A DNA stretch of 34,532 nucleotides from Gluconobacter sp. Dm-62 (GTDB lineage: Bacteria; Pseudomonadota; Alphaproteobacteria; Acetobacterales; Acetobacteraceae), in the NCBI RefSeq assembly GCF_018256155.1, contig NZ_JAERLY010000023.1, forward strand, positions 1-34,532, in the 5' to 3' direction. The position numbers and the translations under genes were made by a program. Below, piece after piece: positions 1 through 34,472 of this stretch. The notes under the pieces are model-generated. The model searched no databases and had not been told where the DNA came from. It saw nothing but the letters and a program-made list of their open reading frames with translations. Numbering within the stretch: the first letter of the stretch is position 1; each line of letters begins with the position of its first letter.

Positions 1-76
1 ACCTTACCCATAAAACCCGTCCTCGTTCAGGCCAGATGATAGCTTATCGCCCTGTCCGAAAAATGGGGACCACCTC
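1..76 (-). mobile_element. Left end of an IS3-family element (partial, runs out of the window)
   Basis: These 76 bases are an exact reverse complement of 33221-33296, the left end of the complete element at the other edge of the window. They comprise the terminal inverted repeat (its outer edge at 76), the leader, and the first four codons of the OrfA gene (ATG at 9-11 on the minus strand). The element is therefore oriented leftward and its body lies outside the window. Its intactness cannot be judged. The host sequence next to it begins TGACC at 77. Confidence 0.93.
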
Positions 77-226
77 TGACCTATCCACAAGAACATGCCC
101 TGCTTCTGTGACTCTGTCGGCCAAGATCTTACCGGAAATGTCGGTTTCTAAATTCCGACTATCCGAAATGGTGAGAATTGCAATCCGAACGGGTATAGAG
201 TTGTTCAAGTTATTATCTTTCTACTT

Positions 227-2314
227 TTATTCCGGACGCGACTTTAGCTTCCCCGACTCAAGTTCATCCGCAAGAGCATCAGCGTGATACACTGTCCTCA
301 ACGCAGCCATGATGGCACTTGTATCCGTGGAAACAGCACGATTGCGCTCGATGTCGTAATAAAGATCGCCCGCCAGGCTATCGAGGTTACCGTCAAAAAT
401 CAGGCCAACGACATCGCCTTGACGGTTAATAACAGGGGAGCCTGAATTGCCGCCGACAATGTCATTGGTCGACACATAATCAAGCTTCGTAGAGAGGTTT
501 AGATGTGGCTTCGCATCCAACCAGACTTGCGGCAGACGGAACGGATCACTGCCCGTTGCATGTTTGTACATCCCTGCAAAATCCGTGAAGGGTGCAATGG
601 CCTTTGCGCCATCCTGGAAGCCTTTAACCGTGCCGTAAGACAGTCGCGGCGAGAACGTGGCATCCGGATAAAGTGTATCAGCCTTTCCTTCTGCCTGAGC
701 ACGCGCGAACTGGGCCCGTGCAATCGTACCCTGGGCTTCGTGCATCGGTGCTTCAATCTGGTCACGGCTGCGATTGCGGATCGTGTCCAGAACCAGCTGT
801 AAGTGACGTGCCAGAACGATCATTGGATCTTTGGATGCTTCAATGGCCTTGACGCCACCTTTGTAAAGCGCAAGACGCTCTGCGGGATCCGCCAGTTTCG
901 TGCCCTGTATCAGTTCTACGGCGCGCTCATCCGGGCTTTTTGTTCCCAGAATCAGATGGACCGCTGCATCATCCTCACCGAGTATCTGGCGCATGGTCGT
1001 CATACCTAACGCCAAAGTCGTAGTTTCCAATTCAGTATGCACCGGCACTTTCGCAGCGATCTCGGTTTCAAGTGCGGCTAATTCCGCCTCATGGTAACCG
1101 GCCCGACGCTCTGTATCTGGCTTCTTTCGTTCATACGCCGCTGACACCAGCATAACAGCGTCCCCCAGCAGACCATGGACTGTGCGTGTTATGGCATAAT
1201 CATGCACATAATACTGACGCTGCACAGCAAGAGCGGCTTCTACTTTTTTGTACGGCTCACCATAAGTCTTGCGACGTTCTGCATCTGCGTCAATCCACGC
1301 CTGAAGGGCTTGATCTTCCGCCTCGCGCTTTTCTATCACTTCAGGTTCACGCAAAGCCTTTGCTGTACCAGACAGAGATTTCAGTGCGTTCTGAACACCG
1401 AAAAGCGTGTTCTGTGCGTCAATCAGATGGGTCTTGCTTTCTCTGGAATATTGCCACAGCGCTCCTTCAAGGGTCGAATAGGCAGCAATAATGGTTGGCA
1501 GGCTGACATCTCGTTGAAATGTCAAGGCGCTGGCCGGAAGGGACCGTTGTGTGCGTCCTGGGTTTCCGGATGTGAAGACCAGATCACCAGCCTTGGGGCC
1601 CTTTGGATCGAATTTAAAAAACGGCGTATGAACCGGCTTGCCGTCTTCAAACACCCGCAGCATCGATAGATCAATATCATAACGCGGGAATGTAAAGTTA
1701 TCGGGATCACCACCAAAGAATGCTATATCCTGATCAGGCGCCATCACGAGACGGACATCCTGATAACGGCGGTAGCGATAAAGCGCCGTCTGTCCACCAT
1801 GATAGAGTGTCACGACATCGCAACGCCAGTGTGAGGCATCACCCACCGCGCATTCCTTGGTCAGGACACTATTGGCAACCTGCAAAGCCTTGGCATATTC
1901 CGCGCCATGTTTTCCTGCGGTCATTTCTGCGACACGACCCGTTACATCTTTCACCTGATCCAGACGATCCAGTTCCATCCCCGGACACTGAGGCTCTTTT
2001 GAGACCTCTCGAGCCGAGAAACCATCATGGAAATAATCGTGATTTTTATCAGACAGATCCGTGAGACACGTATTGGCACAATGATGATTTGTCATCACCA
2101 AACCATCACCTGATACGAACGAGGCAGAGCAGCCTTCCGCCAAGCGTGCCGAAGACTGAATGACATGATTAATCCATTCTACAGAGGGTTCAAACCCATA
2201 TTGCTGCTTCATCTGACGCACAGGCAAATGATCAAACGTCCACATGCCTTCTTCAGCCTGAGCGGATCCAATAAACGCAGGGATAACCGCAAACAAAATT
2301 GATTTTTTTCTCAT
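227..2314 (-). CDS. Exported S46-family dipeptidyl-peptidase (DPP7/DPP11 type)
   Basis: Serine exopeptidase predicted to release dipeptides from peptides in the periplasm. The N-terminus has a signal peptide (MRKK, a hydrophobic stretch, then a cut near SAQA-E). The chymotrypsin-like triad is visible: His in MTNHHC (residues 75-79), Asp in the FPRYDID segment, and Ser in GGNSGSPV near the C-terminus. About 695 residues is normal for S46. The residue 18 positions after the catalytic Ser is Gly (FDGN). In characterised enzymes Gly here goes with DPP7-like hydrophobic P1 preference, whereas DPP11 has Arg. I chose the ATG at 2314; a TTG at 2326 is possible. No clear Shine-Dalgarno sequence is seen. 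It is a single gene reading toward the left IS end, with a Zur-like palindrome about 140 bases upstream of the start. Confidence 0.9.
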   Translation of the reverse strand: MRKKSILFAVIPAFIGSAQAEEGMWTFDHLPVRQMKQQYGFEPSVEWINHVIQSSARLAEGCSASFVSGDGLVMTNHHCANTCLTDLSDKNHDYFHDGFSAREVSKEPQCPGMELDRLDQVKDVTGRVAEMTAGKHGAEYAKALQVANSVLTKECAVGDASHWRCDVVTLYHGGQTALYRYRRYQDVRLVMAPDQDIAFFGGDPDNFTFPRYDIDLSMLRVFEDGKPVHTPFFKFDPKGPKAGDLVFTSGNPGRTQRSLPASALTFQRDVSLPTIIAAYSTLEGALWQYSRESKTHLIDAQNTLFGVQNALKSLSGTAKALREPEVIEKREAEDQALQAWIDADAERRKTYGEPYKKVEAALAVQRQYYVHDYAITRTVHGLLGDAVMLVSAAYERKKPDTERRAGYHEAELAALETEIAAKVPVHTELETTTLALGMTTMRQILGEDDAAVHLILGTKSPDERAVELIQGTKLADPAERLALYKGGVKAIEASKDPMIVLARHLQLVLDTIRNRSRDQIEAPMHEAQGTIARAQFARAQAEGKADTLYPDATFSPRLSYGTVKGFQDGAKAIAPFTDFAGMYKHATGSDPFRLPQVWLDAKPHLNLSTKLDYVSTNDIVGGNSGSPVINRQGDVVGLIFDGNLDSLAGDLYYDIERNRAVSTDTSAIMAALRTVYHADALADELESGKLKSRPE

Positions 2315-2454
2315 AAATAAACCCAACTAAAAGACCTTAAAGATACGTTAATATAAATTTTCTTAACGTTTTACATTGTAATAATTCCCGTTCCTTGTTT
2401 AACGAGTCGTAGTTTGTTGATTCGCGTCGAAAAATTTTATTTTCGGTGGCAACA

Positions 2455-2472
2455 AATACGTTATAACATAAC
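2455..2472. promoter_or_regulatory. Second Zur-like box, upstream of the S46 peptidase gene
   Basis: The sequence AATACGTTATAACATAAC matches the strong box at 5839-5856 in 16 of 18 positions and differs only in the first two bases. The inner palindrome TTATAA and one full outer half-site are intact. It lies in the 374-base gap between the S46 start (2314) and the 3' end of thrS (2689). The only gene start facing away from it is the S46 peptidase; rightward it faces the tail of a gene on the opposite strand. The rest of the gap is AT-rich and holds a hairpin (2615-2645). I see no gene in it. Confidence 0.6.
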
Positions 2473-2614
2473 GAATAGCCCTACCTCTCAATGTTCGTCA
2501 AGCATGAGACTAACGCATTCGATCCCAGACTTAAGTTGCGTAGAAATAATCAAGCGTTTCTGTGTATCGATTAGGCTTTCGAAATCGACGTCGGGAAGTA
2601 GTTAGAAATTCAGG

Positions 2615-2645
2615 AATTATTATAAATATTGTTCGTATAATAATT
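2615..2645 (-). terminator. AT-only hairpin downstream of thrS
   Basis: A perfect 10-bp inverted repeat (AATTATTATA / TATAATAATT) with an 11-base loop lies about 45 bases past the thrS stop codon on the minus strand. It could end the DUF1826-zur-thrS transcript. The stem is entirely A/T and therefore weak, so a chance structure in AT-rich DNA is possible. Confidence 0.35.
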
Positions 2646-2688
2646 TATCCCGATGATGACTCACAACCAAAGAAATCGTATCTACAAG

Positions 2689-4557
2689 CTAAAAGACTTG
2701 TGCCAAACGAGACTCCGATGCTTTGGAGATTAAATTGATAGCGGAGTCCATATCCAACATTGGTGTTTCTGAGCTTCCATATTCCCGGATAGACACGGTG
2801 CCTGCCTGTGCTTCCTTCTTCCCGACGATCAGCAACATGGGTACTTTCGCGAGGCTGTGTTCGCGGATTTTGTAAGCGATTTTTTCATTGCGCAAATCGG
2901 GCTCTGCTCGGACTCCACGTTGGCGGAGCGCTTTAATCAGATCGACTGCGTAATCGTTCGCAGCGCCGGTGATTGTTGCCACCACGACCTGAATGGGTGC
3001 AAGCCAGAAAGGCAGGTGGCCGGCATGGTGTTCAAGGAGAATGCCGATGAAACGTTCAAGCGAACCGAACAGGGCGCGATGCAGCATGACGGGCGGATGT
3101 TTTTCTCCATCCGCGCCAATATAATGCGCGTCCAGACGCTGAGGCAGATTGAGATCGACCTGAACGGTACCGCACTGCCAGTCCCGGCCGATTGCATCAC
3201 GCAGTACGAACTCCAGCTTGGGACCGTAAAAAGCGCCTTCTCCTGGATTGCGTGTGTAGGAGAGGCCTGAAGCTTCGACCCCGCGCTGTAACGCTTCCTC
3301 CGAGCGATCCCAGATCTCGTCCGATCCGACACGTTTGTCAGGCCGGTCGGAAAATTTGATACGGACATCTTCAAAACCGAAGTCCTTATAGATCGAAAGC
3401 ACGAGATGGCAGATCCGCTGCGTCTCGGCCTCCATCTGTTCCGGTGTGCAGAAAATATGTGCGTCATCCTGCGTGAATGCACGTACGCGCATCAGGCCAT
3501 GCAACGCTCCTGACGGTTCAAAGCGATGGACTTTGCCGAATTCGGCCATCCGCAGGGGCAGGTCGCGATAGCTCTTCAGGCCTTGGCGGAAAACCTGCAC
3601 GCCACCAGGACAGTTCATGGGTTTGAGGGCATAGATGCGCCCTTCGGTTTCGGTGGTGAACATGTTCTCCCCGAATTTTTCCCAATGGCCGGAGGCCTGC
3701 CAGAGCGACAGATCCATGATGTCGGGTGTATTGATCTCCACATAGTTCTCGGCCTTCTGACGTTCGCGCAGATAAGCGAGCAGGGTCTGGAACAGTGTCC
3801 AGCCGTTCGGATGCCAGAACACCGCGCCTGGAGCTTCGGCCTGGAAATGGAACAGATCCATCTCGCGCCCGAGACGACGATGATCACGCCGTGCTGCTGC
3901 TTCCTGACGCTGCTCCCACGCGGCGAGTTCGTCGGCATCACGACAGGCCGTTCCGTGAATCCTCTGCAGCATTGGATTGCTGCGATCACCTTTCCAGTAG
4001 GCACCAGCCGTACCGAGAAGTCGAAAGGCGTGTCCGATCTGTCCTGTGCTGACGAGATGTGGCCCTCGGCAGAGATCGACGAAGTTGCCTTGTCGATAAA
4101 AGCTCAGGGTGGCATCAGCAGGCAGGGACATGATGATCTCGGCCTTGTAGGGCTGTCCATTCTCCCTGCACCAGGACAGCGCTCTCTCGCGATCCCATTC
4201 TTCCCTGACGATTGTTTCATCACGATCAATGATCTCGTGCATGCGGGATTCGATCCGGATGAGGTCGTCATCAGTAAAAGCGTGCTCAGCCGCGAAATCG
4301 TAGAAAAATCCCTGCTCCGTGGCGGGTCCTGTCGCGAGCGCGGTATTGGGAAACAGTTCACTGACGGCCTGCGCAAGGACATGCGCTGTGTCATGGCGGA
4401 TCAGGGAAAGCGCCTCAGTGTCTGAACGGAAGACAGGATCAGCCAGTTGGTCACCAGCTGTGGACGAGAGATCGTTGATAATTCCGTCCACACGGCAGGC
4501 AAGCATATCCTTTGGTTGATGGGATGAAGGACGGGAAGAGATGGTGGTCGATAACAT
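2689..4557 (-). CDS. thrS: Threonyl-tRNA synthetase, Zur-cluster paralogue with truncated TGS domain
   Basis: Class II synthetase charging tRNA-Thr. Domains in order: a remnant of the TGS domain (about residues 18-50, only its second half aligns); the editing domain with HDTAH (HxxxH) and DLCRGPH; the catalytic core with PMNCPGG, the motif-2 Arg region (MRVRAFTQDDAH) and MLHRALFGSLERF; and the anticodon-binding domain. The three zinc ligands known from E. coli ThrRS (one Cys, two His) are all retained, so it is still a zinc enzyme by sequence. At 622 residues it is about 20 shorter than usual because of the missing TGS start. It is last in the operon after zur (40-base gap). Its position beside zur suggests a back-up copy expressed under zinc limitation. 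A housekeeping thrS should exist elsewhere in the genome. Confidence 0.93.
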   Translation of the reverse strand: MLSTTISSRPSSHQPKDMLACRVDGIINDLSSTAGDQLADPVFRSDTEALSLIRHDTAHVLAQAVSELFPNTALATGPATEQGFFYDFAAEHAFTDDDLIRIESRMHEIIDRDETIVREEWDRERALSWCRENGQPYKAEIIMSLPADATLSFYRQGNFVDLCRGPHLVSTGQIGHAFRLLGTAGAYWKGDRSNPMLQRIHGTACRDADELAAWEQRQEAAARRDHRRLGREMDLFHFQAEAPGAVFWHPNGWTLFQTLLAYLRERQKAENYVEINTPDIMDLSLWQASGHWEKFGENMFTTETEGRIYALKPMNCPGGVQVFRQGLKSYRDLPLRMAEFGKVHRFEPSGALHGLMRVRAFTQDDAHIFCTPEQMEAETQRICHLVLSIYKDFGFEDVRIKFSDRPDKRVGSDEIWDRSEEALQRGVEASGLSYTRNPGEGAFYGPKLEFVLRDAIGRDWQCGTVQVDLNLPQRLDAHYIGADGEKHPPVMLHRALFGSLERFIGILLEHHAGHLPFWLAPIQVVVATITGAANDYAVDLIKALRQRGVRAEPDLRNEKIAYKIREHSLAKVPMLLIVGKKEAQAGTVSIREYGSSETPMLDMDSAINLISKASESRLAQVF

Positions 4558-4597
4558 GAGAGAGCCTTAACGGAGAAGAGCGGCGAGGGGCCGCGGT

Positions 4598-5095
4598 TCA
4601 TTTGGGCGCGCGGGTCGGAAGCTTGTGCTTTTGTTGTGTCGGCAAGAAAGACGGGCAGACGCTGCATCGTGCGCAGACGCCCTGGACTTCGATGACCCGA
4701 TGCCGGACCTGAAATCCAAGGGTCTCGGCCGCAGCGTCGATCAATTGACAGGATAGTGTATTTTCCACTGCTTGCGCGGCACCACACTGGTCGCAGATAC
4801 AGTAGACAAGGCGAGAGGGGTCGTTTGCCCGGATCCGCACGAAGGCATTTCGGCTTTCGAGCCGCCCCACCAATCCGCTGGCGATCAGCTTTCCGAGAGC
4901 TCGATAAATCATAGTCGGGGCGATTCGTCGGCAATCCGGATGACTGACACACCGAAGGATGTCGTAAGCCGAGAGTGGCACATTTGCCCTCGTCAGCACG
5001 TCGAGCACATCATTCCGTAAAGCCGTGGCCCGCCTTTTGAAGGCATCGCAACCTTGATGTGCGTCGCGAGACGACGGCATGACACGCTCTATCAT
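4598..5095 (-). CDS. zur: Fur-family zinc uptake regulator (Zur)
   Basis: A 165-residue Fur-superfamily repressor. It has an N-terminal winged helix (RNDVLDVLTRANVPLSAYDI..., with APTMIYRALGKLIASGLV as recognition region). The C-terminal metal and dimer domain contains two Cys pairs, CDQC and CARC (followed by SVC), the structural-zinc signature of this family. Start: the ATG at 5095 overlaps the DUF1826 stop as ATGA. A longer frame begins at 5173 but would overlap DUF1826 by 82 bases, and its extra N-terminus does not look like Fur. Assignment as Zur rather than Fur or PerR rests on the neighbours and on the Zur-type palindrome at the head of this operon, which also implies autoregulation. 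Confidence 0.88.
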   Translation of the reverse strand: MIERVMPSSRDAHQGCDAFKRRATALRNDVLDVLTRANVPLSAYDILRCVSHPDCRRIAPTMIYRALGKLIASGLVGRLESRNAFVRIRANDPSRLVYCICDQCGAAQAVENTLSCQLIDAAAETLGFQVRHRVIEVQGVCARCSVCPSFLPTQQKHKLPTRAPK

Positions 5096-5799
5096 CGGGA
5101 AATTGTATCCATCACGAGGACCGGCCCAGGCCTTGTACCGTTTGCGATATTTGCCGGGAGACGATGAAGGCATCCGGGTTTGCCTTCAGCCGCCCCTTTA
5201 ATGAACGCTACTGCGAACGGTGTCAGGGTACTGACAATACCACTCTTTGGATTTTGACTGCCGCACCACTCTGGTCCGGCGCTTCCATAGGCGCAGATCA
5301 GCCGAAGTGCATCGGGGGGTAACTCGAACGCAGTCTCCTCACGGGATGGCGTTATTAGCTGGATGTGCTGCCGGACGCCTCCTGTCAGCGCACCGAACAG
5401 TGCGGATAGGTCCCTGACATCAGTCAGGATGAGCGGAAACCAATCCTGCTGCAAAGCCGGGTTTACAAGGGAATCCGAGATTTCCGAAGGTGTGCCGGCG
5501 AGAGTGAAAGCAGATGGGGCTTGTGAGCAGTTTGTGAGAGCTCCTTCCCATGTTTCCGGAATCCGGCGCCCCCACACGACCATATCGACATCCGGTCGCT
5601 GCAGATCCATCAAGACTGTCGCGTGGGCACAGGCGACCACATGCGGTGCAAGACGGCCCAGAGTACTGTTTTCCGGTGGGTCGATTGTTGGCGCGGGCCA
5701 GCTCTCCATGAATAGTATGGCGCCGAGACTTTCCTCCGGTGCGCGCGCGGGTGGAGTCATATCCGTCGAGACAGGATGTTGCTGTGAGGGAGGGGGCAT
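5092..5799 (-). CDS. DUF1826 family protein, zinc-cluster associated
   Basis: A 235-residue protein of unknown biochemical function, first gene of the leftward operon, starting 40 bases from the Zur box. Family signatures are seen in the second half: LRLICAYGSAGPEWC corresponds to the RL-x-TY-x-GPGTEW stretch of DUF1826. Near the C-terminus, AFIKG followed by GCLHRLPAN corresponds to the KG...HRSP stretch. The first half has VVWGRRIP, like the family's early W-R motif. No signal peptide or membrane segment is seen, so it is probably cytoplasmic. Members of this family are often found next to Zur and COG0523 genes. A role in zinc sparing or metal handling is inference from context only. The His usually found before the RL motif is not obvious here. 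Confidence 0.75.
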   Translation of the reverse strand: MPPPSQQHPVSTDMTPPARAPEESLGAILFMESWPAPTIDPPENSTLGRLAPHVVACAHATVLMDLQRPDVDMVVWGRRIPETWEGALTNCSQAPSAFTLAGTPSEISDSLVNPALQQDWFPLILTDVRDLSALFGALTGGVRQHIQLITPSREETAFELPPDALRLICAYGSAGPEWCGSQNPKSGIVSTLTPFAVAFIKGAAEGKPGCLHRLPANIANGTRPGPVLVMDTISR

Positions 5800-5838
5800 G
5801 GTTCCCGAGCTTGACGATAGGTGGCGAACGTCCTTATG

Positions 5839-5856
5839 GTTACGTTATAACATAAC
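5839..5856. promoter_or_regulatory. Zur box in the divergent promoter region
   Basis: The 18-base sequence GTTACGTTATAACATAAC is a palindrome with a single unpaired position per half, and it closely matches the Zur operator style of alphaproteobacteria. It sits in the 81-base gap between the divergent starts at 5799 and 5881, so one site could repress both operons. A TTGACT hexamer on the minus strand (5864-5859) is a possible -35 element just beside it. The only other near-copy in the window is at 2455-2472. Confidence 0.88.
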
Positions 5857-5880
5857 ATAGTCAATAGCAGATAAACCTCA

Positions 5881-6492
5881 ATGGACACACTGATGGACAT
5901 TCCACGGCAAGTGAGAACCCGGCCGAGCCGTGCTCAGGCGGAAGAGGCGGTGCGAACCCTGCTCGCCTGGACCGGTGACGATCCTGATCGCGAGGGGCTT
6001 GTCGATACGCCTGACCGCGTGGTGCGGGCCTATGAGGAGTTTTTCGAGGGATATCAGGACGACCCGGTCGCTCTTCTGGAGCGGACCTTCGAAGAGAGCG
6101 GTAACTACAACGAGATGGTGGTGCTACGCGATATCCGTCTGGAATCCCATTGCGAGCATCATATCATTCCGCTGATCGGTAAGGCGCATGTGGCGTATCT
6201 GCCCGACAAGCGGGTAGTTGGCATCAGCAAGCTGGCGCGTCTCGTGGACGTCTTCGCCCATCGTCTACAGATCCAGGAAAAACTGACGGCCCAGATCGCG
6301 GATACAATCCAGAGCGTGCTTCAACCGCGTGGCGTCGCGGTCGTGATCGACGCGGCTCACCAGTGCATGACCACACGCGGAGTACATAAGCCAGGCGTGA
6401 GTATGGTGACTAGCCGCCTGCTGGGCGAGTTCGAGACGTCGGAATCTCTGCGGCGCCAGTTCTTCACCATGGCGGGAATGGGTGGCGTGTGA
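5881..6492 (+). CDS. folE: GTP cyclohydrolase I (zinc-dependent type IA)
   Basis: Converts GTP to dihydroneopterin triphosphate, the first step of tetrahydrofolate synthesis. The 203-residue protein carries the hallmark ESHCEHH motif and [11 protein letters not shown]. Together these supply the zinc ligands (Cys, His, Cys), so this is the classical zinc enzyme and not the metal-flexible FolE2 type. It is the first gene of the rightward operon, 24 bases after the Zur box. The ATG at 5881 is taken as the start; ATG 5893 is also possible. It overlaps hisI by one base (TGATG). The context suggests extra copies are made under zinc shortage to keep folate synthesis running. Confidence 0.95.
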
Positions 6493-6998
6493 TGGGCACA
6501 ACTGTATCTTCTGTGTCCACGGCATTTGGGTCGCGCGTCTCAATTGAGCAGGTCGAGGAGGGGAGCGATCTCGCCCCACGTTTCGACGCCAGCGGACTGC
6601 TGACCGTGGTCACAACGGACGCAGAAAGCGGTGATGTCATGATGGTTGGCGTCATGAACGCAGAGGCGCTCGCACGCACTATCGCAACCCGTGAGGCGCA
6701 TTACTGGAGCCGGAGCCGTCAGTGTCTCTGGCGAAAGGGCGCCACGAGCGGGCTGGTCCAGCATGTCCTCGAAATGCGGATCGACGACGATCAGGACGCG
6801 ATCTGGCTGCGCGTTCACACTGCGGGCACAGGAGCGAACTGCCATGTGGGTTATCGAAGCTGTTTTTATCGGCGTGTTGATCTCACTTCTGAGGAAGGCA
6901 TTCCGTCATCATCGGCAGCACTCCTCTTTTGCGAAACGCACAAAATATTCGATCCGCTCGCCGTCTATGGCGACGCCCCAAACCCGACAAAGCTTTAG
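6492..6998 (+). CDS. hisI: Phosphoribosyl-AMP cyclohydrolase paralogue lacking one zinc cysteine
   Basis: Third step of histidine synthesis: opens the adenine ring of phosphoribosyl-AMP. The family core is clear: [26 protein letters not shown], and [15 protein letters not shown] with two of the three zinc Cys (C117, C124). The third zinc Cys normally sits inside the D-C-D-x-D motif. Here that motif reads DDDQD (residues 98-102), so the Cys is replaced by Asp, and there are two extra residues between it and C117. Length is 168 residues from the ATG at 6492. A GTG one codon earlier (6489) is an alternative. There is an N-terminal extension relative to short HisI. It lies between folE and the COG0523 gene in the Zur-headed operon, consistent with a stand-in for the housekeeping HisI. 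Confidence 0.92.
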
Positions 6999-7011
6999 AG
7001 GAAAAATCCCC

Positions 7012-8241
7012 ATGGATGACCAACTTCCCGTTACCGTGCTGTCCGGCTTTCTTGGCGCGGGAAAGACGACCTTGCTCAATCACGTACTGAATAACCGCCA
7101 GGGCTATAAGGTCGCGGTCATCGTGAATGATATGAGCGAGGTCAACATTGACGCCGCTCTGGTGCGCGAGGGCGGCAGCAATCTGTCGCGTACCGATGAA
7201 AAGTTGGTTGAAATGACCAATGGCTGCATTTGCTGCACGCTCCGCGACGATTTGTTGCAGGAAGTACGGAGGCTCGCAGAGGAGCGGAAATTCGATTATC
7301 TGCTCATTGAATCTACAGGCATTGCGGAACCGCTGCCCGTAGCCGCAACGTTTGAGTTTCGTGACGAGAGTGGCGTCAGCCTGAGCGATATCGCACGGCT
7401 GGATACGATGGTGACGGTCGTTGATGCGGTCAATCTCCTGCGCGATTATTCTTCCAGCGATTTCCTGAAGGATCGGGGTGAAACGGCCGGGGAGGACGAC
7501 GAGCGTACCCTGGTCGATCTGCTCGTCCAGCAGATCGAGTTTGCGGATATCGTGGTGATCAACAAAGTCTCCACCGCTACACCGGATCAGGTTGATGCGG
7601 CGAGGCAGATCATTCGTGCGTTGAATTCGGACGCTGATATCATTGAGACCGACATGGGGTCTGTTCCTGTTGAGCGGATCCTGAATACAGGCCGTTTCGA
7701 TTACGACAAGGCACATCAGCATCCGTTGTGGTTCAAGGAACTTTACGGCTTTTCCAGCCATGTTCCTGAAACAGACGAATATGGCATCCGTAATTTTGTC
7801 TATCGTGCGCGCCGTCCGTTCCAACCAGCGGAATTCCAGGCCTTCCTTGATCGGAGCTGGCCTGGCGTCGTACGCGCCAAGGGCCATTTCTGGTTAGCTA
7901 CGCGCCCGGACTGGGTAGGTGGAATGAGTCAGGCTGGAGCTCTGGTTCGAAGCGAGGCGATGGGGCTGTGGTGGGCGGCGATCCCGAAAAATCAGTGGCC
8001 GGATACTGATCAGTGGCGGGACTTCGTATTGGGAAACTGGGATCCGGTCTTCGGCGACCGTCGTCAGGAAATCGTCTTCATCGGCAATGGAGATATGGAT
8101 GAATCCGGACTTCGGCAGGAACTTGATGCCTGTCTTGTTCCAGATCTCGGAGACACCCCTTTTGAGCCGTCACGCTATGCACGCCTCCCTGATCCCTTTC
8201 CGCTTTGGCGTCGCCAGTCGGAAAGCCTTGAGTTGGCCTGA
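7012..8241 (+). CDS. COG0523 GTPase, CobW/ZNG1-like zinc metallochaperone
   Basis: A 409-residue G3E-family P-loop GTPase. The N-terminal domain has Walker [12 protein letters not shown] (about residues 12-22), the metal-binding GCICC motif of COG0523 proteins, ESTGIAEP (Walker B / switch region) and an NKVS base-recognition motif. The C-terminal CobW_C domain begins near [12 protein letters not shown]. In this family GTP hydrolysis drives metal transfer to client proteins. Members under Zur control are linked to survival in low zinc. A possible client is one of the zinc enzymes in the same operon (inference). The ATG at 7012 follows AGAGGAAAAA, a good ribosome site. A longer open frame upstream (from 6691) is only overlap with hisI in another frame. 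Confidence 0.94.
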
Positions 8242-8277
8242 ACGAATTACCACACGCTATTATTGAGGAATATTTTC

Positions 8278-9441
8278 ATGAAAACCCGAGCTGCAATTGC
8301 GTGGGAACCTAACATGCCGCTTGAGATCGATCTGGTTGATCTCGAAGGCCCGAAAGACGGCGAGGTTCTGGTCCGTATCGTGACCACGAGCCTGTGTCAT
8401 ACGGATATGTTTACCCTGTCGGGACATGATCCGGAAGGACGTTTTCCATGTATTCTTGGTCACGAGGGGGTGGGGATCGTCGAGGATGTGGGTAAAGGTG
8501 TTACCTCTGTCGCTCCGGGTGATCATGTCATTCCGCTCTATATTCCCGAAGACCCGAACTGCCCGATGATCCGTTCGGGCAAAACCAATCTCTGCTCGAC
8601 TATCCGCGAGACACAGGCGCTCGGTCTGATGCCAGACGGCACCAGCCGTTTTTCATATAAGGGCCGCCAGATCTTTCATTACATGGGCACCAGCACGTTC
8701 AGCGAGTACACCGTGCTGCCCGAAATTGCCGTGGCGAAGATCACCAAAGAGGCGCCGCTTGCGAAAGCCAGCGTCATGGGGTGCGCCGTCCCGACAGGTA
8801 TGGGAGCCGTGCGGAACGCCGCGAAAGTGGAAGCGGGATCGACTGTGGCCGTCTTTGGTCTCGGTGCGATCGGCATGGCCGTCATTCAGGGGGCTGTCAT
8901 GGCCGGTGCTGCAAGGATCATCGGCATCGACACCAATCCGGCGAAGTTCCTGCTGGCCCGAAATCTGGGGGCGACCGATCTCGTCAATCCGACCGATCAT
9001 ACCGATCCAATCCAGAAAGTTATCGTGGAGATGACGGGTGGCGGCGTGGATTATTCCTTTGAGGCGATCGGTCGGGTCGATGTCATGCGAGCGGCCCTTG
9101 AGTGTTGCCATAAAGGCTGGGGTGAATGCACAGTCATCGGTGTCGCTGGGGCTGGCGAGGAGATCTCGACGCGGCCTTTCCAGCTGATCACGGGACGGGT
9201 CTGGCGGGGCACGGCCTTTGGGGGGGTAAAAGGGCGTTCGCAGTTACCCGGTATGGTCGATGAATGGCTAGCGGGGAAGTTTAGCGTTGACCCTTACATC
9301 ACCCACAACATGACTCATGATCGGATCAATACGGCATTTGACCTTCTGCATCGGGGAGAGGCCATTCGTTCTGTCATGCACTATCAGCCAGGCGAAACCC
9401 TGTCGAATAACCTGCCCGGCAAAATTCTGACCGATCTTTAA
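8278..9441 (+). CDS. Class III alcohol dehydrogenase-like protein with degraded structural zinc site
   Basis: Medium-chain dehydrogenase closest to S-(hydroxymethyl)glutathione dehydrogenase (FrmA/AdhC), which oxidises the glutathione adduct of formaldehyde. Catalytic zinc residues are present: C40 in SLCHTD, H62-E63 in LGHEGVG, and Cys in MGCAVPTG. The NAD site is GLGAIG. The lobe that holds the structural zinc normally has four Cys (C-x2-C-x2-C-x7-C). Here the aligned residues are D92, C95, I98 and C106, so two ligands are gone. Length (387) is normal. The ATG at 8278 follows GAGGAATATTTTC. It is the fourth gene of the Zur-headed operon, so a version needing one zinc instead of two fits the setting. 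Substrate is inferred from family only. Confidence 0.9.
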
Positions 9442-9452
9442 GGAGACGAAAC

Positions 9453-10019
9453 GTGGCTATGCTGAGACCTAATCCACGTGGTGATTTTCCCGTGGTTTCT
9501 GAAAGCGCCTTTGTCGATCCGACCGCGATCCTGTGCGGTCATGTGATTGTCGAGGACAATGTGTTCATCGGTCCTTATGCTGTTATTCGTGCCGATGAAG
9601 CCGATGAAAATGGCCATGTCGAGCCCATCCTGATCGGGAGTGGATCAAACATTCAGGATGGTGTTGTCATCCACTCGAAAGACGGCGCGGCCGTGACGAT
9701 CGGGTCGCGCACGTCCATTGCACATCGCTCGATCATTCACGGTCCCTGCGCTGTTGGAGACGAGGTATTCATTGGCTTCAATTCCGTGATCTTCAACTGC
9801 ACGGTCGAGCGTGGCTGCGTTGTGAGGCATAATTCCGTTGTCGAAGACTGCGTCTTGCCGGAGCAGTTTTATATTCCGTCCACGACAACAATTCATTCGA
9901 ATACAGATCTATTGACGATTACGCAGGTCACTCAGGATGCGACGGCATTTTCTGAGAGCGTCGCGGAGATGAATGTTAGTCTGGCACACTCCTATCGACG
10001 TATAGCCAATCAACTTTAA
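9453..10019 (+). CDS. Gamma-class carbonic anhydrase-like left-handed beta-helix protein
   Basis: A 188-residue hexapeptide-repeat protein of the gamma-CA/PaaY family, predicted to interconvert CO2 and bicarbonate in the cytoplasm. Repeated turns such as VDPTAILCGHVIVEDNVFIG form the beta-helix. The three metal-binding His are seen in VVIHSK and in AHRSIIHG (two). Gamma enzymes can work with iron or cobalt, which would suit replacement of a zinc-only beta-class enzyme during zinc shortage (inference). The start is taken as GTG at 9453, seven bases after AGGAG. An ATG two codons later would be spaced less well. It is the last gene of the rightward Zur operon and begins 11 bases after the dehydrogenase stop. 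Confidence 0.9.
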   Translation: MAMLRPNPRGDFPVVSESAFVDPTAILCGHVIVEDNVFIGPYAVIRADEADENGHVEPILIGSGSNIQDGVVIHSKDGAAVTIGSRTSIAHRSIIHGPCAVGDEVFIGFNSVIFNCTVERGCVVRHNSVVEDCVLPEQFYIPSTTTIHSNTDLLTITQVTQDATAFSESVAEMNVSLAHSYRRIANQL

Positions 10020-10092
10020 AACTTCCGTCAAGGGACGCAATTAAAGAGGTACGAACCAATTTTGGCTGAATGGGGACCTTATTCTCCTGGAA

Positions 10093-10123
10093 AAACCGGA
10101 GGGTTTTTAGAGCCCTCCGGTTT
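10093..10123. terminator. Strong hairpin after the zinc operon
   Basis: A perfect 11-bp stem (AAACCGGAGGG / CCCTCCGGTTT) with a 9-base loop lies 74 bases past the carbonic anhydrase stop and 78 bases past the end of the reductase remnant on the other strand. On the minus strand it is followed by a run of five T (including the stem end), so it looks like a rho-independent terminator in that direction and may serve both convergent units. The stretch 10020-10200 otherwise shows no gene. Confidence 0.7.
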
Positions 10124-10200
10124 GTCGGTTCGGTGAACACCACGGGCGCCAGGAAATCCAGTTGGAACCGCATATCTGGCGATCATCTGCTAAGTGGACA

Positions 10201-10616
10201 CTATCGTACCATGAGCAGTGGCCCACGAGGTTTTGCCTGACACGCCAGGATGTAGCCCGCCTTCTTGTCTGCCGCCGATAGACCGACTTCGCAACCGGTT
10301 GTGATGGTGCCTTTTATGAGCTTGACTTTGCAGTGTAGGTTGTGCCCGATAGCGAGAAGCTGATCGGATATTCCTTGGTGTCCGGCAGGTTATCTCCGTG
10401 CGACAGAACGCCGCCGAACGATTCACAGGCGATCCGTTCAGGTGAAGTCCCGAGTTCATCACACAATACAAGCGCCGCGGCGACCATAGCAACTGGGCCG
10501 CAAATACGCATATGATGATCGGCGATAAAACGGAAGGGAAGCCGTTCACCTACCAGCGGGCGTCGTCTGAACGAACGGATATCTGGCGTTTCGGCTCGCA
10601 CGTGAATGATATACAT
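10201..10616 (-). pseudogene. Eroded flavin/[2Fe-2S] reductase remnant (FNR plus ferredoxin domains)
   Basis: Pieces of a phthalate-dioxygenase-reductase-like protein survive in two frames. From 10616, VRAETPDIRSFRRRP resembles the start of a ferredoxin-NADP reductase (FNR) fold. It jumps directly to MRICGPVAMV...ERIACESFG, which is the end of the NAD-binding lobe, so most of the flavin domain is missing. Then ISFSLSGTTYTA is the first strand of a ferredoxin domain, and this frame stops at 10314. The following bases in another frame give CKVKLIKGTI...AGYILACQAKP, the end of the same ferredoxin, with stop at 10201-10203. The Cys-rich cluster loop is deleted. At least two deletions and a frameshift are needed to explain this. 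It directly follows the MOSC gene, which may once have been its partner or N-terminal part. Confidence 0.75.
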
Positions 10617-10625
10617 GGTGCCCGC

Positions 10626-11474
10626 TCAGAATCCTGCGGGGCGTTTGTTTTCTTCCAACGCCGTGCATGCCGCTGCATTGTTATACGTTGTAACGATATC
10701 GTTCAGTGCGATCCTTGTGTTAACGCCGGTGCGTGCAGACCGAGTATTGATCGCTACACGAAAAAAATGATTAAAGCGCGCGGGATTAGACCATGCCGGC
10801 TGCGTCCGGCGCCTGTACTCTGCGAAGCGGCGGGCAAAAGCATTGTCTCTCTGACCAGTTAGCGGATCGCGAGACGGCACGACACAACGCTGACAGGGGT
10901 TTATTCCCAACCACTCTGTGCCACCAAGGTGAAACTCGACTTCGTCTCCAAGTCCTCCGAACAGTGCATCTTCCCAAAAAGCCGGGACGCCCCCGATCTC
11001 GATATTGGTCCGAAAGCGGGCCCGAACTTGCTCGACTGGCAACCCGAACCATATTCCAATCGTCTCTAGCGTCGCAACGCTGATGATAGTCGGACCAGGC
11101 GAATCCGTATCATCAGGATGTCCCGTAGTGGTATCCGCCCGAAGGTGGACTGGAAAACCGAAAAACCGACTTAGCCATGCCTCTATTGGTCTTGCAGTGC
11201 CATCAAGATTGAACAGAACAGTAGGCAGACCTCGACCAGAGTCATCTCGTAGGCTTACGGTCCGTTTATCAAGATCGAAACCAGCGCGGATGCGATGAAT
11301 CTCTGCGTGGTTCTTGCCGTTAACCACACGCCCCTGTGCGTCAAATAGAGCCCAGCACCGGTCGTCTGCCAAGGCCCCGCTAGTAAGAACCCGCGCATTT
11401 GTGACTTCCACCGGATCCAATGATTTAATCGGAAAGATCAGAATGCGGGAGATAAACGGAACCGATCTGGTCAT
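10626..11474 (-). CDS. MOSC-domain protein (YcbX-like molybdenum cofactor sulfurase C-terminal family)
   Basis: A 282-residue protein with an N-terminal MOSC_N barrel (ILIFPIKSLDPVEVTNARV..., then DDRCWALFDAQGRVVNGKNH) and a MOSC domain with the conserved Cys in GINPCQRCVVPSRDPLTG. MOSC proteins bind the molybdenum cofactor, and YcbX-type members reduce N-hydroxylated compounds together with an electron-donating reductase. E. coli YcbX carries its ferredoxin in the same chain. Here the frame stops at 10626, and reductase/ferredoxin fragments follow after a 9-base gap. The protein therefore appears to have lost its electron donor and may itself be non-functional. The ATG at 11474 has only a weak ribosome site. 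Confidence 0.82.
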   Translation of the reverse strand: MTRSVPFISRILIFPIKSLDPVEVTNARVLTSGALADDRCWALFDAQGRVVNGKNHAEIHRIRAGFDLDKRTVSLRDDSGRGLPTVLFNLDGTARPIEAWLSRFFGFPVHLRADTTTGHPDDTDSPGPTIISVATLETIGIWFGLPVEQVRARFRTNIEIGGVPAFWEDALFGGLGDEVEFHLGGTEWLGINPCQRCVVPSRDPLTGQRDNAFARRFAEYRRRTQPAWSNPARFNHFFRVAINTRSARTGVNTRIALNDIVTTYNNAAACTALEENKRPAGF

Positions 11475-11539
11475 TTTTCATAATCTCGCGAGGAAATTTC
11501 AGATGTTAGAAACTATGTTGGAGCGGCGGATCTAATACG

Positions 11540-11850
11540 TCATGGCAGCCTTGTTTTGAGGACTGTATTGGTGATTGCAATGAGACGCCGTACGATAGCG
11601 ACGATCACCAGTTTGTGTGGTTTACCCGATTGTTTCATGGGTTTGGAAACATCTTTCAGAAGGGTTTATGGCACGCAGTTGCCAATCCTGCCTGAAACAG
11701 GGGCTGACGGAGAAATCTTCCTCCCCTTGAAATGACACGTTTTCTATGCATCACGCCATTGTCATGAGCCATTGGTGCAAGTCCGGCCATGGCAGAGGCT
11801 TCTGTTGCCAGAATACGATCAAGTCCTGGCATTTCAAACGGATAGTGTTT
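11540..11850 (-). pseudogene. IS110-family transposase remnant (C-terminal part, frameshifted)
   Basis: Read on the minus strand, one frame gives AGLAPMAHDNGVMHRKRVI, then SRGGRFLRQPLFQAGLATACHKPF and a stop. This matches the transposase_20 domain of IS110-family enzymes (GLAP...G....R..I..GGR..LR). A neighbouring frame then gives LKDVSKPMKQSGKPHKL and VIVAIVRRLIAITNTVLKTRLP, ending at 11540-11542, which matches the C-terminal GKP.K.....MRKL...N tail of the same family. A frameshift and an in-frame stop separate the two. Upstream to about 11960 only broken frames are seen, probably more of the same gene. No full-length ORF or clear element ends are found. Confidence 0.72.
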
Positions 11851-12006
11851 CTTTTTCTAACTGATCCTGGCCACTCGGCCCCTCTGTTCTGACGTCGACA
11901 TCCAAGGCTTGAATCACATCAGACCGATTTTCCAAACAGACTCTCAAGCCGTCGATGCCCGCCCGAGCCTGATCTTATACGGAAAAATGGAATAAGCGCT
12001 TGAATA

Positions 12007-12024
12007 TAAGTGAGCGTTCACTTA
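12007..12024. promoter_or_regulatory. TetR-type operator upstream of the tetR-nmrA-fdx operon
   Basis: Arms TAAGTGA and TCACTTA form a perfect 7-bp inverted repeat around a 4-base centre, ending 23 bases before the tetR ATG. Its position and form are typical of an autoregulatory TetR site. The ribosome site TAAGGAG (12036-12042) follows. Confidence 0.75.
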
Positions 12025-12047
12025 CCTTACTTCCGTAAGGAGAACCC

Positions 12048-12758
12048 ATGCCGACCTCACGCCGTTCCAGATTGTCCGCGACTGACCGCAAGCAGGCCAT
12101 CCTGTCCGCTGCAGCTCCCATTTTCGCCCGGCTCGGTCGGGACGGTGCGACGACCAAGGAAATCGCCAGAGCCGCTGGTGTTTCCGAAGCTTTGCTTTAT
12201 CGGCACTTTACCAGCAAGGACGTGCTTTATGCGGCGCTTGAAACTCACTGCGTTGAAGCGAATGCAGTTGGCAGCCGTATTCTCGCCGAGGCGACGCCTT
12301 CGACTGAAACATTGGTCATGGGTGTTGCCATACTCGTACACGCGGTGTTTCCCGGGATTGGCGATGCGCAGTCTCACGAAGACACCAAACGCCTTGTGAC
12401 GGCCAGCCTGCTTGGCGATGGCCAGTTCGCAAAGGCGTTCCTCGACCAGCATGTAAAGCCGTGGGTCAGCGTTTTTTCGCAATCATTCAGGGCGGCTCAA
12501 GACGCGGGAGACGTCGAATCTGGCATTCATATCGGTCATGCAGAGATATGGTTCGTCCATCATCTAGCGAATACTTTGCATCTCATCAGCCTGCCCGACA
12601 TCACGGTCGTTGAATACGGCATCACACGAGACAAGCTGGTCGAGAACACTATCCGGTTTCTGTTGCGCGGGCTCGGCCTCCAGAACGCCGTCATAGACCG
12701 GCATTACGACCCGAAAAAACTCAAGATGATCATTATATCAATGGATCAGAAAATATGA
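12048..12758 (+). CDS. TetR/AcrR-family transcriptional regulator
   Basis: A 236-residue regulator. The N-terminal helix-turn-helix is clear (KQAILSAAAPIFARLGRDGATTKEIARAAGVSEALLYRHFTSKDVLYAAL, about residues 15-65), followed by a divergent all-helical ligand domain. The ATG at 12048 is preceded by TAAGGAGAACCC. It overlaps the next gene by four bases, so regulator, reductase and ferredoxin form one translationally coupled operon behind the palindrome at 12007-12024. The inducer is unknown; genes it serves are probably the two downstream. Confidence 0.92.
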   Translation: MPTSRRSRLSATDRKQAILSAAAPIFARLGRDGATTKEIARAAGVSEALLYRHFTSKDVLYAALETHCVEANAVGSRILAEATPSTETLVMGVAILVHAVFPGIGDAQSHEDTKRLVTASLLGDGQFAKAFLDQHVKPWVSVFSQSFRAAQDAGDVESGIHIGHAEIWFVHHLANTLHLISLPDITVVEYGITRDKLVENTIRFLLRGLGLQNAVIDRHYDPKKLKMIIISMDQKI

Positions 12759-13663: not shown

Positions 13664-13974
13664 GCGGGTCAGGGAATAAAGCGATGATCACACCTAAATG
13701 TCTGAAAGACGGCCAAACAGGACGGGTCATGCCGGTCGTAGACTTTAATCGCTGTGAGGGAAAAGACGCCTGCGTCGCCGTATGTCCTTACGACGTGTTT
13801 GAAGTGCGCAAGATCGATCCGTCCGATTATCGCGATCTTTCATTTGTGGGCAAAATCAAGAGCTATGTCCACGGAGGGATGGTCGCCTATACCCCGCATG
13901 CTGATCAATGCCGTGCTTGTGGTTTGTGTGTGAAAGCATGTCCTGAGCGCGCAATCAAATTGGTAAAAATTTGA
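13660..13974 (+). CDS. Dicluster ferredoxin with one incomplete cluster motif
   Basis: A 104-residue ferredoxin-fold protein. The C-terminal motif CRACGLCVKACPERAI is a complete [4Fe-4S] site. The N-terminal motif is C-EGKDA-C-VAV-CP, which lacks the second Cys of the usual C-x2-C-x2-C-x3-CP. That site probably holds a [3Fe-4S] cluster, or gains its fourth ligand elsewhere. There is a 30-residue insert between the two motifs. It is the last gene of the tetR operon, coupled by ATGA to the NmrA-like gene, and is a likely electron carrier for it (inference). A hairpin at 14061-14107 follows. Confidence 0.85.
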   Translation: MSGSGNKAMITPKCLKDGQTGRVMPVVDFNRCEGKDACVAVCPYDVFEVRKIDPSDYRDLSFVGKIKSYVHGGMVAYTPHADQCRACGLCVKACPERAIKLVKI

Positions 13975-14060
13975 CGTTCATACAAAGATGACTGCGCATT
14001 TTTTTCTATAATCAGAATTTCTGCTGATGTAAGTCGTCATGACTCCTCGTGCTTTGGGGA

Positions 14061-14107
14061 AGCTATGACAGCCTATCTCTTTCTGGAGAGATTTATCTGT
14101 CATAGCT
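14061..14107. terminator. Long two-part hairpin between convergent genes
   Basis: The outer stem is 11 bp and perfect (AGCTATGACAG / CTGTCATAGCT). The inner stem is 6 bp (ATCTCT / AGAGAT) around a 6-base loop, and TATTTT follows on the plus strand. It lies between the ferredoxin gene and the convergent LysR gene and probably terminates both. The rest of 13975-14130 shows no gene. Confidence 0.65.
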
Positions 14108-33066: not shown

Positions 33067-33285
33067 ATGGCAGATGGAGAGTGGTTAGGACTATTCTATC
33101 GTATCGTCCCGCCCCCGCGAAGCAAGAAGCCAATCGTCATAGCTCCCTAATTATACCAAACGAGACGAAATATTAGGTTCGGGATCTGGAAGGGTTCGAA
33201 GAACCTATCTTAGGAAGATAGAGGTGGTCCCCATTTTTCGGACAGGGCGATAAGCTATCATCTGGCCTGAACGAGGACGGGTTTT

Positions 33286-33597
33286 ATGGGTAAGGTTACG
33301 CGGAAACGGTATGCGGCAGAGTTCAAGTCACGGGTTGCGCTGGAGGCGATCCGTGGGGAACTGACGCTGGCGGAACTGGCTTCGAAACATGGCGTGCATC
33401 AGACGATGATCGCCCAATGGAAACGGCAGGCGATCGAGGGCATGGCAAGCCTTTTTTCTGGTAAGTCAGTAACGGAACCTTCAGTCAGCCCTGCTGATGT
33501 AGAGAAACTGCACGCCAAGATCGGCCAGTTGCTGGTGGAACGGGATTTTTTGCGGGATGCCTCTGCTCGGTTGGGCGTGATCAGAGGCGGCAGATGA
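33286..33597 (+). CDS. IS3-family OrfA (DNA-binding transposase subunit)
   Basis: A 103-residue protein with the HTH_Tnp_1 domain: RKRYAAEFKSRVALEAIRGELTLAELASKHGVHQTMIAQWKRQAIEG. A leucine-zipper-like helix follows toward the C-terminus (VEKLHAKIGQLLVERDFL) for multimerisation. It binds element ends and, fused to OrfB by frameshifting, makes the active transposase. It ends with an ATGA overlap with OrfB. A TTTTTTG heptamer lies at 33546-33552 in the right phase for -1 slippage. Confidence 0.95.
   Translation: MGKVTRKRYAAEFKSRVALEAIRGELTLAELASKHGVHQTMIAQWKRQAIEGMASLFSGKSVTEPSVSPADVEKLHAKIGQLLVERDFLRDASARLGVIRGGR
33546..33552 (+). other. Slippery heptamer for -1 programmed frameshifting
   Basis: T-TTT-TTG lies in OrfA phase (codons GAT TTT TTG). 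From it the -1 frame is open without a stop through 33594 and into OrfB, so slippage would give one OrfAB protein of about 380 residues, as in other IS3-family elements. Termination-reinitiation at the ATGA overlap is a second route to OrfB. Confidence 0.65.
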
Positions 33598-34472
33598 TTG
33601 ACCCGAAGAGAGCATGCCTGCCGATAATCCGGCAATGCACGCTGCTGCAACTCAACCGGTCGGGCGTTTACTATCGGCCTGTGCCACAGAGCGAGGCCAA
33701 TCTGGAGCTGATGCGGCTGATCGACGCCCAGTTCCTGGAAACGCCCTATTATGGCTCACGGCAGATGACATGGCATCTGCGCCGCCTGGGACATGAAGTG
33801 GGCCGCAAGCGGGTCCGGCGGATCATGGCGATCATGGGCCTGCGGGCGATCTACCAGAAGCCGCGCACGACCGTGCCTCATCCGGAGCATCGGAAATATC
33901 CATATCTGCTGCGGGATCTGGTCATCAATCGGCCTGACCAGGTCTGGTGTTCCGATATCACATATATTCCCATGAAACGGGGATTTCTCTATCTCGTGGC
34001 GATCATGGACTGGTTCACGCGCAAGGTCCTGTCCTGGCGTCTATCGAACACGATGGACGTGGAGTTCTGTATCGAGGCGCTACAGGATGCCCTCATGCGT
34101 TATGGCGCCCCGGACATTTTCAATACTGACCAGGGGTCGCAATTTACGACACCCCGTTTCAGCGGGATACTGGAAGAGCGTCAGATCCGCATCAGCATGG
34201 ATGGGCGCGGTCGCTGGCTGGACAACGTGTTTATCGAGCGTCTGTGGCGGTCGCTGAAATATGAATGCGTCTACCTGCACGCGTTCGAGACCGGATCAGA
34301 GCTGAGGGCCGGGCTTGGCAGATGGATCGCCCATTATAACGAAAGGCGTCCGCATATGGCGCTGGCTGGACGTACGCCCGATGAGGCGTATCATGACGTG
34401 CCGACATCATCTGGTCCGGGGTTAACCCCGGACCAGATGGCCAACAGCAACGCTGTCAGAAGGGCGGCATAA
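33594..34472 (+). CDS. IS3-family OrfB (DDE transposase catalytic subunit)
   Basis: A 292-residue rve-type integrase-core protein. An N-terminal HTH_21 region (LMRLIDAQFLETPYYGSRQMTWHLRRLGHEVGRKRVRRIMAIMGLRAIYQKP) is followed by the catalytic triad: Asp in WCSDITYIP, Asp in NTDQGSQFTT, and Glu in DNVFIERLWRSLKYE with the usual Lys seven residues later. It ends with HYNERRPHMALAGRTPDEAY, typical of the family. It appears intact, so the element may be active. Confidence 0.96.
   Translation: MIDPKRACLPIIRQCTLLQLNRSGVYYRPVPQSEANLELMRLIDAQFLETPYYGSRQMTWHLRRLGHEVGRKRVRRIMAIMGLRAIYQKPRTTVPHPEHRKYPYLLRDLVINRPDQVWCSDITYIPMKRGFLYLVAIMDWFTRKVLSWRLSNTMDVEFCIEALQDALMRYGAPDIFNTDQGSQFTTPRFSGILEERQIRISMDGRGRWLDNVFIERLWRSLKYECVYLHAFETGSELRAGLGRWIAHYNERRPHMALAGRTPDEAYHDVPTSSGPGLTPDQMANSNAVRRAA

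What the first reader, a model, noticed from the sequence alone, without database searches (positions are those of the whole stretch)
5092..10019. Bidirectional Zur cassette of eight genes from one palindrome
Seen: a near-perfect 18-base palindrome lies between two divergent operons that include zur itself. Known: thrS, folE, hisI, gamma-CA and COG0523 genes recur as extra copies near Zur. Inference: this is a compact zinc-starvation module in which all products are stand-ins or metal-delivery factors; the presence of a class III ADH and DUF1826 within it is less common. Its place between inverted IS copies suggests it could be acquired as a unit.
Basis: partly seen in the sequence, partly recalled or inferred. 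Interest (0 to 1): 0.75.

Follow-up and report, generated by a model that had tools for sequence, protein, structure and literature searches.

The report
Plasmid zinc-starvation cassette with blind regulator
Vinegar bacteria carry, often on plasmids, a ready-made set of genes for coping with zinc shortage, and the zinc-sensing switch gene inside the set has lost its zinc-sensing site, which suggests it works as a brake or partner for the cell's real zinc sensor.

Summary
The cassette lies on Gluconobacter and Acetobacter plasmids and was found in 19 further acetic-acid-bacterial loci. Most of this is a known kind of system: the Zur/COG0523 cassette described in 2009.

What looks new is that the cassette's "zur" is not a normal Zur. 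In 20 of 20 copies the regulatory-site ligands H77, C88 and E111 are gone; the structural Cys4 site stays in 20 of 20 and the DNA-contact residues in 19 of 19 readable. In 47 of 47 other Acetobacteraceae Zurs aligned with them the three ligands remain. All 26 Gluconobacter genomes searched have a ligand-complete Zur; 8 also have the cassette version. Other cassette proteins lost metal ligands too: the class III ADH lacks two of four structural-zinc cysteines, HisI2 one of three conserved cysteines, DUF1826 an HxD motif.

Best reading: the host Zur opens the cassette in zinc starvation, and the zinc-blind paralogue then acts as a feedback brake (inferred). The flanking IS is a late insertion, not the vehicle.

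The parts
5839..5856 (.). Zur box between the divergent operons (palindrome; canonical 15-mer TGTTATnnnATAACA fits at 5843-5857 with 1 mismatch)
   Evidence: recognisable in the same intergenic place in 24 of 24 loci printed; at no more than one mismatch in 18 of 19 named loci (not L149) and 5 of 5 plasmid loci
2455..2472 (.). second Zur box, in front of the S46 peptidase
   Evidence: box-like sites at this place also in L136, L137, L139, L142 and in the plasmid loci L023, L024, L027
227..2326 (-). S46 family peptidase (Dpp7-like), probable own Zur-controlled unit; likely ATG at 2314
   Evidence: PF10459, 660.6 bits; found in 6 of 7 named Gluconobacter loci (L138 ends before it) and in none of the 12 other named loci as held
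2689..4557 (-). thrS2, second threonyl-tRNA synthetase; no TGS domain hit; zinc-site C/H/H residues kept
4598..5095 (-). zur-like regulator lacking the regulatory zinc site (alternative start 5173)
5092..5799 (-). DUF1826 protein, HxD motif lost; overlaps the start of zur-like
   Evidence: low-confidence model resembling 2OG-oxygenases
5881..6492 (+). folE2, GTP cyclohydrolase I FolE (PF01227; not the FolE2/IB family), metal-ligand motifs kept
6489..6998 (+). hisI2, phosphoribosyl-AMP cyclohydrolase; first conserved Cys replaced by Asp
7012..8241 (+). zigA, COG0523 zinc metallochaperone GTPase
   Evidence: NF038288, 612.4 bits, cut-off 600
8278..9441 (+). class III alcohol dehydrogenase lacking two of four structural-zinc cysteines; catalytic ligand motifs kept
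9453..10019 (+). gamma-class carbonic anhydrase-like protein, His motifs kept
1..77 (.). end of an IS3-family element at the contig edge; not part of the cassette
33220..34472 (+). IS3-type transposase gene (recognised by eye) and the inverted copy of that end; not part of the cassette

Best explanation
This is a plasmid-borne zinc-starvation cassette of acetic acid bacteria. The host's own zinc-loaded Zur represses both operons through one operator that overlaps two divergent promoters (inferred from conserved boxes). In zinc starvation Zur lets go, and the cell makes second copies of enzymes plus ZigA, which hands zinc to essential clients. The spare enzymes divide into lower-zinc versions (ADH without its structural zinc site, HisI2 with one zinc ligand changed) and full-ligand versions (ThrRS2, FolE, gamma-CA) that would rely on ZigA or on another metal. 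The cassette also makes a Zur paralogue that keeps the fold, the structural zinc site and the DNA-contact residues but cannot use the normal regulatory zinc site. Because it would be made only after Zur lets go, the most likely role is a zinc-insensitive brake on Zur boxes (feedback), perhaps through mixed dimers with Zur. Shown: gene content, conservation, operator, lost ligands, a separate ligand-complete Zur. Inferred: control by that Zur, zinc response, and the brake (about 0.4 by itself).
Against: No expression or binding data. Pattern counts at up to 2 mismatches barely exceed the reversed-pattern control (41 against 31 per strand), so weak sites mean little; one 1-mismatch place (C16:28209) lies by genes with no obvious zinc link. 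ThrRS2, FolE and gamma-CA keep their metal-ligand motifs, so they are not zinc-free stand-ins. The brake is one of several roles the loss allows. That the window contig is a plasmid rests on collinearity of bases 78-20000; 20001-34532 was not compared. Zur-like and DUF1826 are the fastest-evolving cassette genes in the comparisons with dS 0.3-0.8; against close relatives the zur-like dN/dS scatters from 0.15 to 0.67. Zur-like appears broken in A. cibinongensis. The 47 other Zurs are partly close kin, and the 24 from the family sample were the better-scoring ones of that search.
Confidence: 0.6

Rival explanations
1. Anti-repressor: the zinc-blind paralogue forms inactive mixed dimers with the host Zur and so keeps the whole Zur regulon open (positive feedback favouring the plasmid's own genes).
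For: Predicted fold and Cys4 site kept; co-residence with a ligand-complete Zur in 8 of 8 Gluconobacter carriers.
Against: Its base-contact residues Y45 and R65 are kept (19 of 19 readable), which a pure anti-repressor would not need; it is only about 28% identical to the local Zur, so mixed dimers are uncertain.
Confidence: 0.22
2. A sensor with a new input: the paralogue uses other residues (for example the extra Cys next to the CxxC pair, or other Cys/His) to sense another metal or thiol/redox state.
For: Cys99 and Glu111 (window numbering; Glu111 lies two places after the lost ligand position) are invariant in the 14 clade members aligned in A3.
Against: No recognisable second metal site was found; the model is a monomer without metal.
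Confidence: 0.2
3. An ordinary Zur/COG0523 cassette whose own regulator is decaying; nothing new in control.
For: The kind is known (PMC2770081); zur-like is one of the two fastest-evolving genes in the cassette; one copy appears broken.
Against: The loss is shared by the whole clade across four genera, with selection on the rest of the protein (dN/dS about 0.25) and kept DNA-contact and Cys4 residues.
Confidence: 0.15
4. A composite transposon carried by the inverted IS3 copies.
For: 77-base exact inverted arms at 1-77 and 33220-33296.
Against: 33 kb apart with many unrelated genes between; the plasmid match starts at base 78 and runs in one piece to 20000 in two Gluconobacter plasmids.
Confidence: 0.03

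Closest known systems
Zur-regulated COG0523 (yciC/cobW/zigA) clusters of gamma- and beta-proteobacteria (Haas et al. 2009, PMC2770081)
   Same: Zur box, COG0523 GTPase, paralogues of HisI, ThrRS and gamma-CA, DUF1826 and a GTP cyclohydrolase; a plasmid-borne Zur-regulated cluster (on a Klebsiella plasmid) is mentioned there (passages)
   Different: Here alphaproteobacterial; FolE is of the FolE I family and not FolE2/IB; class III ADH and S46 peptidase added; HisI zinc-site Cys lost, where that paper reports kept sites in HisI paralogues; regulator is a zinc-blind paralogue
E. coli Zur (4mtd; PMC4219657) and Xanthomonas Zur (7dh8)
   Different: Regulatory-site ligands replaced (H77 by G or A, C88 by I, H96 mostly by R, E111 by A or S)
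Plasmid Zur-type clusters of Rhodobacterales (Paracoccus sp. MA, P. versutus, P. ferrooxidans, P. seriniphilus, Sagittula stellata, Tritonibacter mobilis)
   Same: DUF1826 and the same ADH variant (EDP[DN]CP) close together in 6 of 6, COG0523-type GTPases in the five annotated ones; HisI with the same Cys-to-Asp change in Paracoccus sp. MA
   Different: Different gene order; zinc or metal ABC genes in the stretch shown for four of the five annotated ones; Sagittula regulator keeps H77 and C88; DUF1826 keeps HxD in the four aligned

Membership tests
Zur-regulated COG0523 cassette | Zur box in the promoter | tested here: met
Zur-regulated COG0523 cassette | COG0523 GTPase of the ZigA kind | tested here: met
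   612.4 bits against cut-off 600
Zur-regulated COG0523 cassette | paralogues of zinc enzymes, with another copy elsewhere in the genome | tested here: met
   thrS, folE, hisI, adh, and a second zigA; gamma-CA not tested
Zur-regulated COG0523 cassette | induction by low zinc or loss of Zur | not testable with these tools
   needs expression data
Zur (zinc sensor), for the cassette regulator | regulatory site His77/Cys88/His96/Glu111 | tested here: not met
   H77, C88, E111 absent in 20 of 20; a His at the H96 position in 2 of 20
Zur (zinc sensor), for the cassette regulator | structural Cys4 site and base-contact Tyr45/Arg65 | tested here: met
   20 of 20 and 19 of 19 readable
Zur (zinc sensor), for the cassette regulator | NCBIfam Zur equivalog NF008646 over its cut-off | tested here: not met
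   71.3 bits against 167
Class III alcohol dehydrogenase (FrmA) | TIGR02818 over its cut-off and catalytic zinc ligands | tested here: met
   622.6 against 543.95 bits; Cys/His/Cys motifs present
Class III alcohol dehydrogenase (FrmA) | four-Cys structural zinc lobe | tested here: not met
   two of four Cys replaced; all four present in the 6 class III ADHs from other contexts compared and in the two solved ones shown
Fe(II)/2OG oxygenase fold, for DUF1826 | double-stranded beta-helix fold | tested here: inconclusive
Fe(II)/2OG oxygenase fold, for DUF1826 | HxD...H metal triad | tested here: not met
   HxD absent in 12 of 12 window-type sequences (genomic context known for few), present in 9 of 10 others
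IS-flanked composite transposon | unit bounded by two IS copies in relatives | tested here: not met
   for the left copy; the right end was not compared

The most novel reading that the evidence does not exclude
A mobile accessory layer for zinc economy: a plasmid brings not only low-zinc enzyme versions but also a zinc-blind Zur that rewires the host's own Zur regulon (brake or anti-repressor) across all chromosomal Zur boxes, so that carrying the plasmid changes how the whole cell reads zinc. Within it, several proteins (regulator, ADH, HisI, DUF1826) have each shed metal ligands while remaining under selection.
Probability: 0.35. Interest if true: 0.72.

Novelty: new variant of a known kind. 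Interest (0 to 1): 0.52.

Why it matters
Zur clusters are known, but a clade-wide zinc-blind Zur paralogue built into a Zur-boxed, plasmid-carried cassette would be a new layer of metal regulation. It makes a clear question testable: can a Fur-family repressor that lost its regulatory metal site act as feedback brake or anti-repressor of its zinc-sensing relative? The ADH and HisI variants give direct tests of the idea that Zur-regulated paralogues save zinc, where the 2009 study noted that HisI and ThrRS paralogues keep their zinc sites.

Tried and rejected
Tried and rejected: (a) IS-driven acquisition: the left IS end is absent from the collinear plasmids. (b) DUF1826 function by fold: only a low-confidence model; the 2OG-oxygenase likeness is a lead, and the cassette version lacks the HxD anyway. 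(c) Published Paracoccus denitrificans RNA-seq (PMC5387054): a search of its main text for alcohol dehydrogenase, DUF1826, phosphoribosyl, glutathione and threonyl found none; supplements could not be read. (d) Print searches for a plasmid Zur paralogue without a regulatory site, a Zur study in Gluconobacter, or a zinc-starvation class III ADH: 20 of 116 listed; 11 of 11; 7 of 7; 20 of 24; 5 of 5; 20 of 120. None of the listed titles and abstract starts describes it; of these papers only PMC2770081, PMC6103462, PMC8000910, PMC4866751 and PMC5786701 were opened, in passages or (PMC4866751) abstract and outline only. Subscription papers are not held. (e) Zinc ligands of HisI (Cys93/109/116), the numbering of ADH structural cysteines, and the ligand motifs of FolE, ThrRS and gamma-CA are recalled; the residue alignments are. 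(f) Not tested: a second gamma-CA; whether the second Zur of non-Gluconobacter carriers keeps its ligands, except those among the loci read; the right end of the window against plasmids. (g) The E. coli dimer-dimer salt bridge (D49/R52) was looked at by eye only and is not used, because the other Gluconobacter Zur also lacks D49.
Full report
What is there. The window is contig C15 of a 3.46 Mb genome. Its genus mates include a genome (G279) whose contig C49 has the same length (8775 bases) as Gluconobacter oxydans NBRC 14819 sequence049 and a Zur-like gene of the same 98% identity, so the host is taken to be a Gluconobacter. Between 2689 and 10019 lie eight genes in two divergent operons: DUF1826, a Fur-family gene and thrS leftward; folE, hisI, zigA, a class III alcohol dehydrogenase and a gamma-carbonic-anhydrase-like gene rightward. 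The palindrome GTTACGTTATAACATAAC sits between them at 5839-5856. A second copy with two mismatches lies at 2455-2472, in front of an S46 peptidase; shuffles give 0.01 matches. Read in the other register, the site is TGTTATGTTATAACG, one mismatch from the Gram-negative Zur core TGTTATnnnATAACA (core recalled; search). Of the 12 named loci outside Gluconobacter, 10 carry that core perfectly (not L149 and L153).

Is it a Zur box? In the whole own genome, places with 0-1 mismatch to TGTTATnnnATAACA are five: between two receptor-like genes on C11 (one a TonB-receptor match below its curated cut-off; the other judged by eye); between a second zigA (72% identical) and a TonB-plug gene on C11; the cassette; one beside a ZnuA gene on C51 (PF01297, 117 bits); and one on C16 without an obvious zinc link. 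At two mismatches the count (41 per strand) is close to the reversed control (31), so weak sites carry no weight. Box sequences like those on C11 and C51 also occur in Gluconobacter genomes G054 and G302, which have no cassette regulator (the list was cut and context was not checked). Across 24 cassette loci (19 and 5 plasmids) the intergenic region keeps a recognisable box and keeps TTGAC at both outer ends, one on each strand (read by eye), as expected of two promoters facing one operator. The one-mismatch core is found in 18 of 19 named loci and 5 of 5 plasmids. The sigma-70 scan found one weak promoter-like site, on the folE side.

Where it travels. DUF1826 of the window finds 7 plasmids, 3 Gluconobacter and 4 Acetobacter; five of these were opened. 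Window bases 78-20000 match two Gluconobacter plasmids end to end, one typed conjugative and one mobilizable. On two Acetobacter plasmids the core lies close to repC. In GTDB genomes 21 loci were found, 19 of them acetic-acid-bacterial and two weak hits elsewhere: 7 Gluconobacter, 10 Acetobacter, Novacetimonas hansenii and Komagataeibacter nataicola. All 19 hold folE, hisI, zigA, DUF1826 and zur-like; thrS2 is in 18 of 19; the ADH signature is readable in 14 of 19; S46 is in 6 of 19, all Gluconobacter (several contigs end inside the cassette). The IS arms at 1-77 and 33220-33296 are not the vehicle: the plasmid match begins at 78, where the IS end stops.

Enzymes that shed metal ligands, and enzymes that did not. 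The ADH keeps the catalytic ligand motifs but has EDPNCPMI...C where class III ADHs have ECxxCxxC...C: two of four structural-zinc cysteines are gone, in 14 of 14 named loci where it could be read and in 3 plasmids. Its nearest kin on plasmids, at 79-82% identity on six Rhodobacterales plasmids, share this. In all six a DUF1826 gene is near; the five annotated ones also have COG0523-type GTPase genes, and four of those five have zinc or metal ABC transporter genes in the stretch shown. Six class III ADHs from other contexts keep all four cysteines: two beside fghA, one unannotated, and three from Gluconobacter. HisI2 has DDDxD instead of DCDxD, losing one of three conserved cysteines, in 19 of 19 loci and in Paracoccus sp. 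MA; the housekeeping HisI keeps it. The window-type DUF1826 lacks an HxD in 12 of 12 sequences read, which is present in 9 of 10 other DUF1826 proteins aligned (L172 is the exception), while the later His-Arg stays in 15 of 15. ThrRS2, FolE and gamma-CA keep their ligand motifs wherever read. FolE belongs to the FolE I (type IA) family, the zinc-dependent kind by PMC10882993 (abstract and passages), not the usual metal-flexible IB.

How it most likely works. In replete zinc, the host Zur holds the shared operator. In starvation both operons open; ZigA supplies clients, spare enzymes run with less or differently delivered metal, and the zinc-blind paralogue accumulates. Since it keeps the DNA-contact residues but cannot be switched off by zinc loss through the usual site, a feedback brake is the most natural role; an anti-repressor through mixed dimers and a new sensing input remain open. 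No expression, binding or metal data exist here, so control and role are inference.

Known or new. The cassette type is known: PMC2770081 (passages) lists HisI, ThrRS and gamma-CA paralogues and DUF1826 in Zur/COG0523 clusters, with one on a plasmid; PMC5786701 (passages) shows a Zur-regulated DUF1826 gene; PMC6103462 (passages) lists thrS2 and alcohol dehydrogenases in other Zur regulons. The zinc-blind Zur clade, the structural-zinc-less class III ADH and the HisI change were not seen in the listings, some of them cut; that is a limited search of an open-access library.

Noticed in passing
window 2455-2472 and 227-2326: A serine peptidase (S46) with its own Zur-like box, seen next to the cassette in Gluconobacter loci only; why such a peptidase should answer to zinc is unexplained.
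   Followed up: partly
L061 7454-7927 (genome G094): A 43% identical Fur-family protein that also lacks the regulatory ligands, beside genes that by eye look like TonB/ExbB/ExbD parts and a nickel/cobalt transporter.
   Followed up: partly
L158 8923-9429 (Paracoccus sp. MA plasmid): A Zur-like repressor near the related cluster with H77 and C88 replaced but the Glu at the E111 place kept: possibly an intermediate or an independent loss.
   Followed up: partly
L157, L159, L161, L167-L170, L173, L174: DUF1826 proteins outside the cassette carry FHxD...HRSP; the cassette DUF1826 model resembles 2OG-Fe(II) oxygenases (low confidence), so DUF1826 may be an oxygenase-like family.
   Followed up: partly
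L025 and L026, about 9054-9460: On two Acetobacter plasmids the ADH is reduced to a remnant (41% of the query covered) and gamma-CA was not found, close to repC.
   Followed up: no
L172 1020-2561 (Lichenicola cladoniae plasmid): A Fur-family gene with the regulatory His and Cys kept stands divergently beside a DUF1826 gene on a plasmid.
   Followed up: no
L027 15478-17564 (G. oxydans ATCC 9937 plasmid): The S46 peptidase is annotated in three pieces there, with an IS5 element close by.
   Followed up: no
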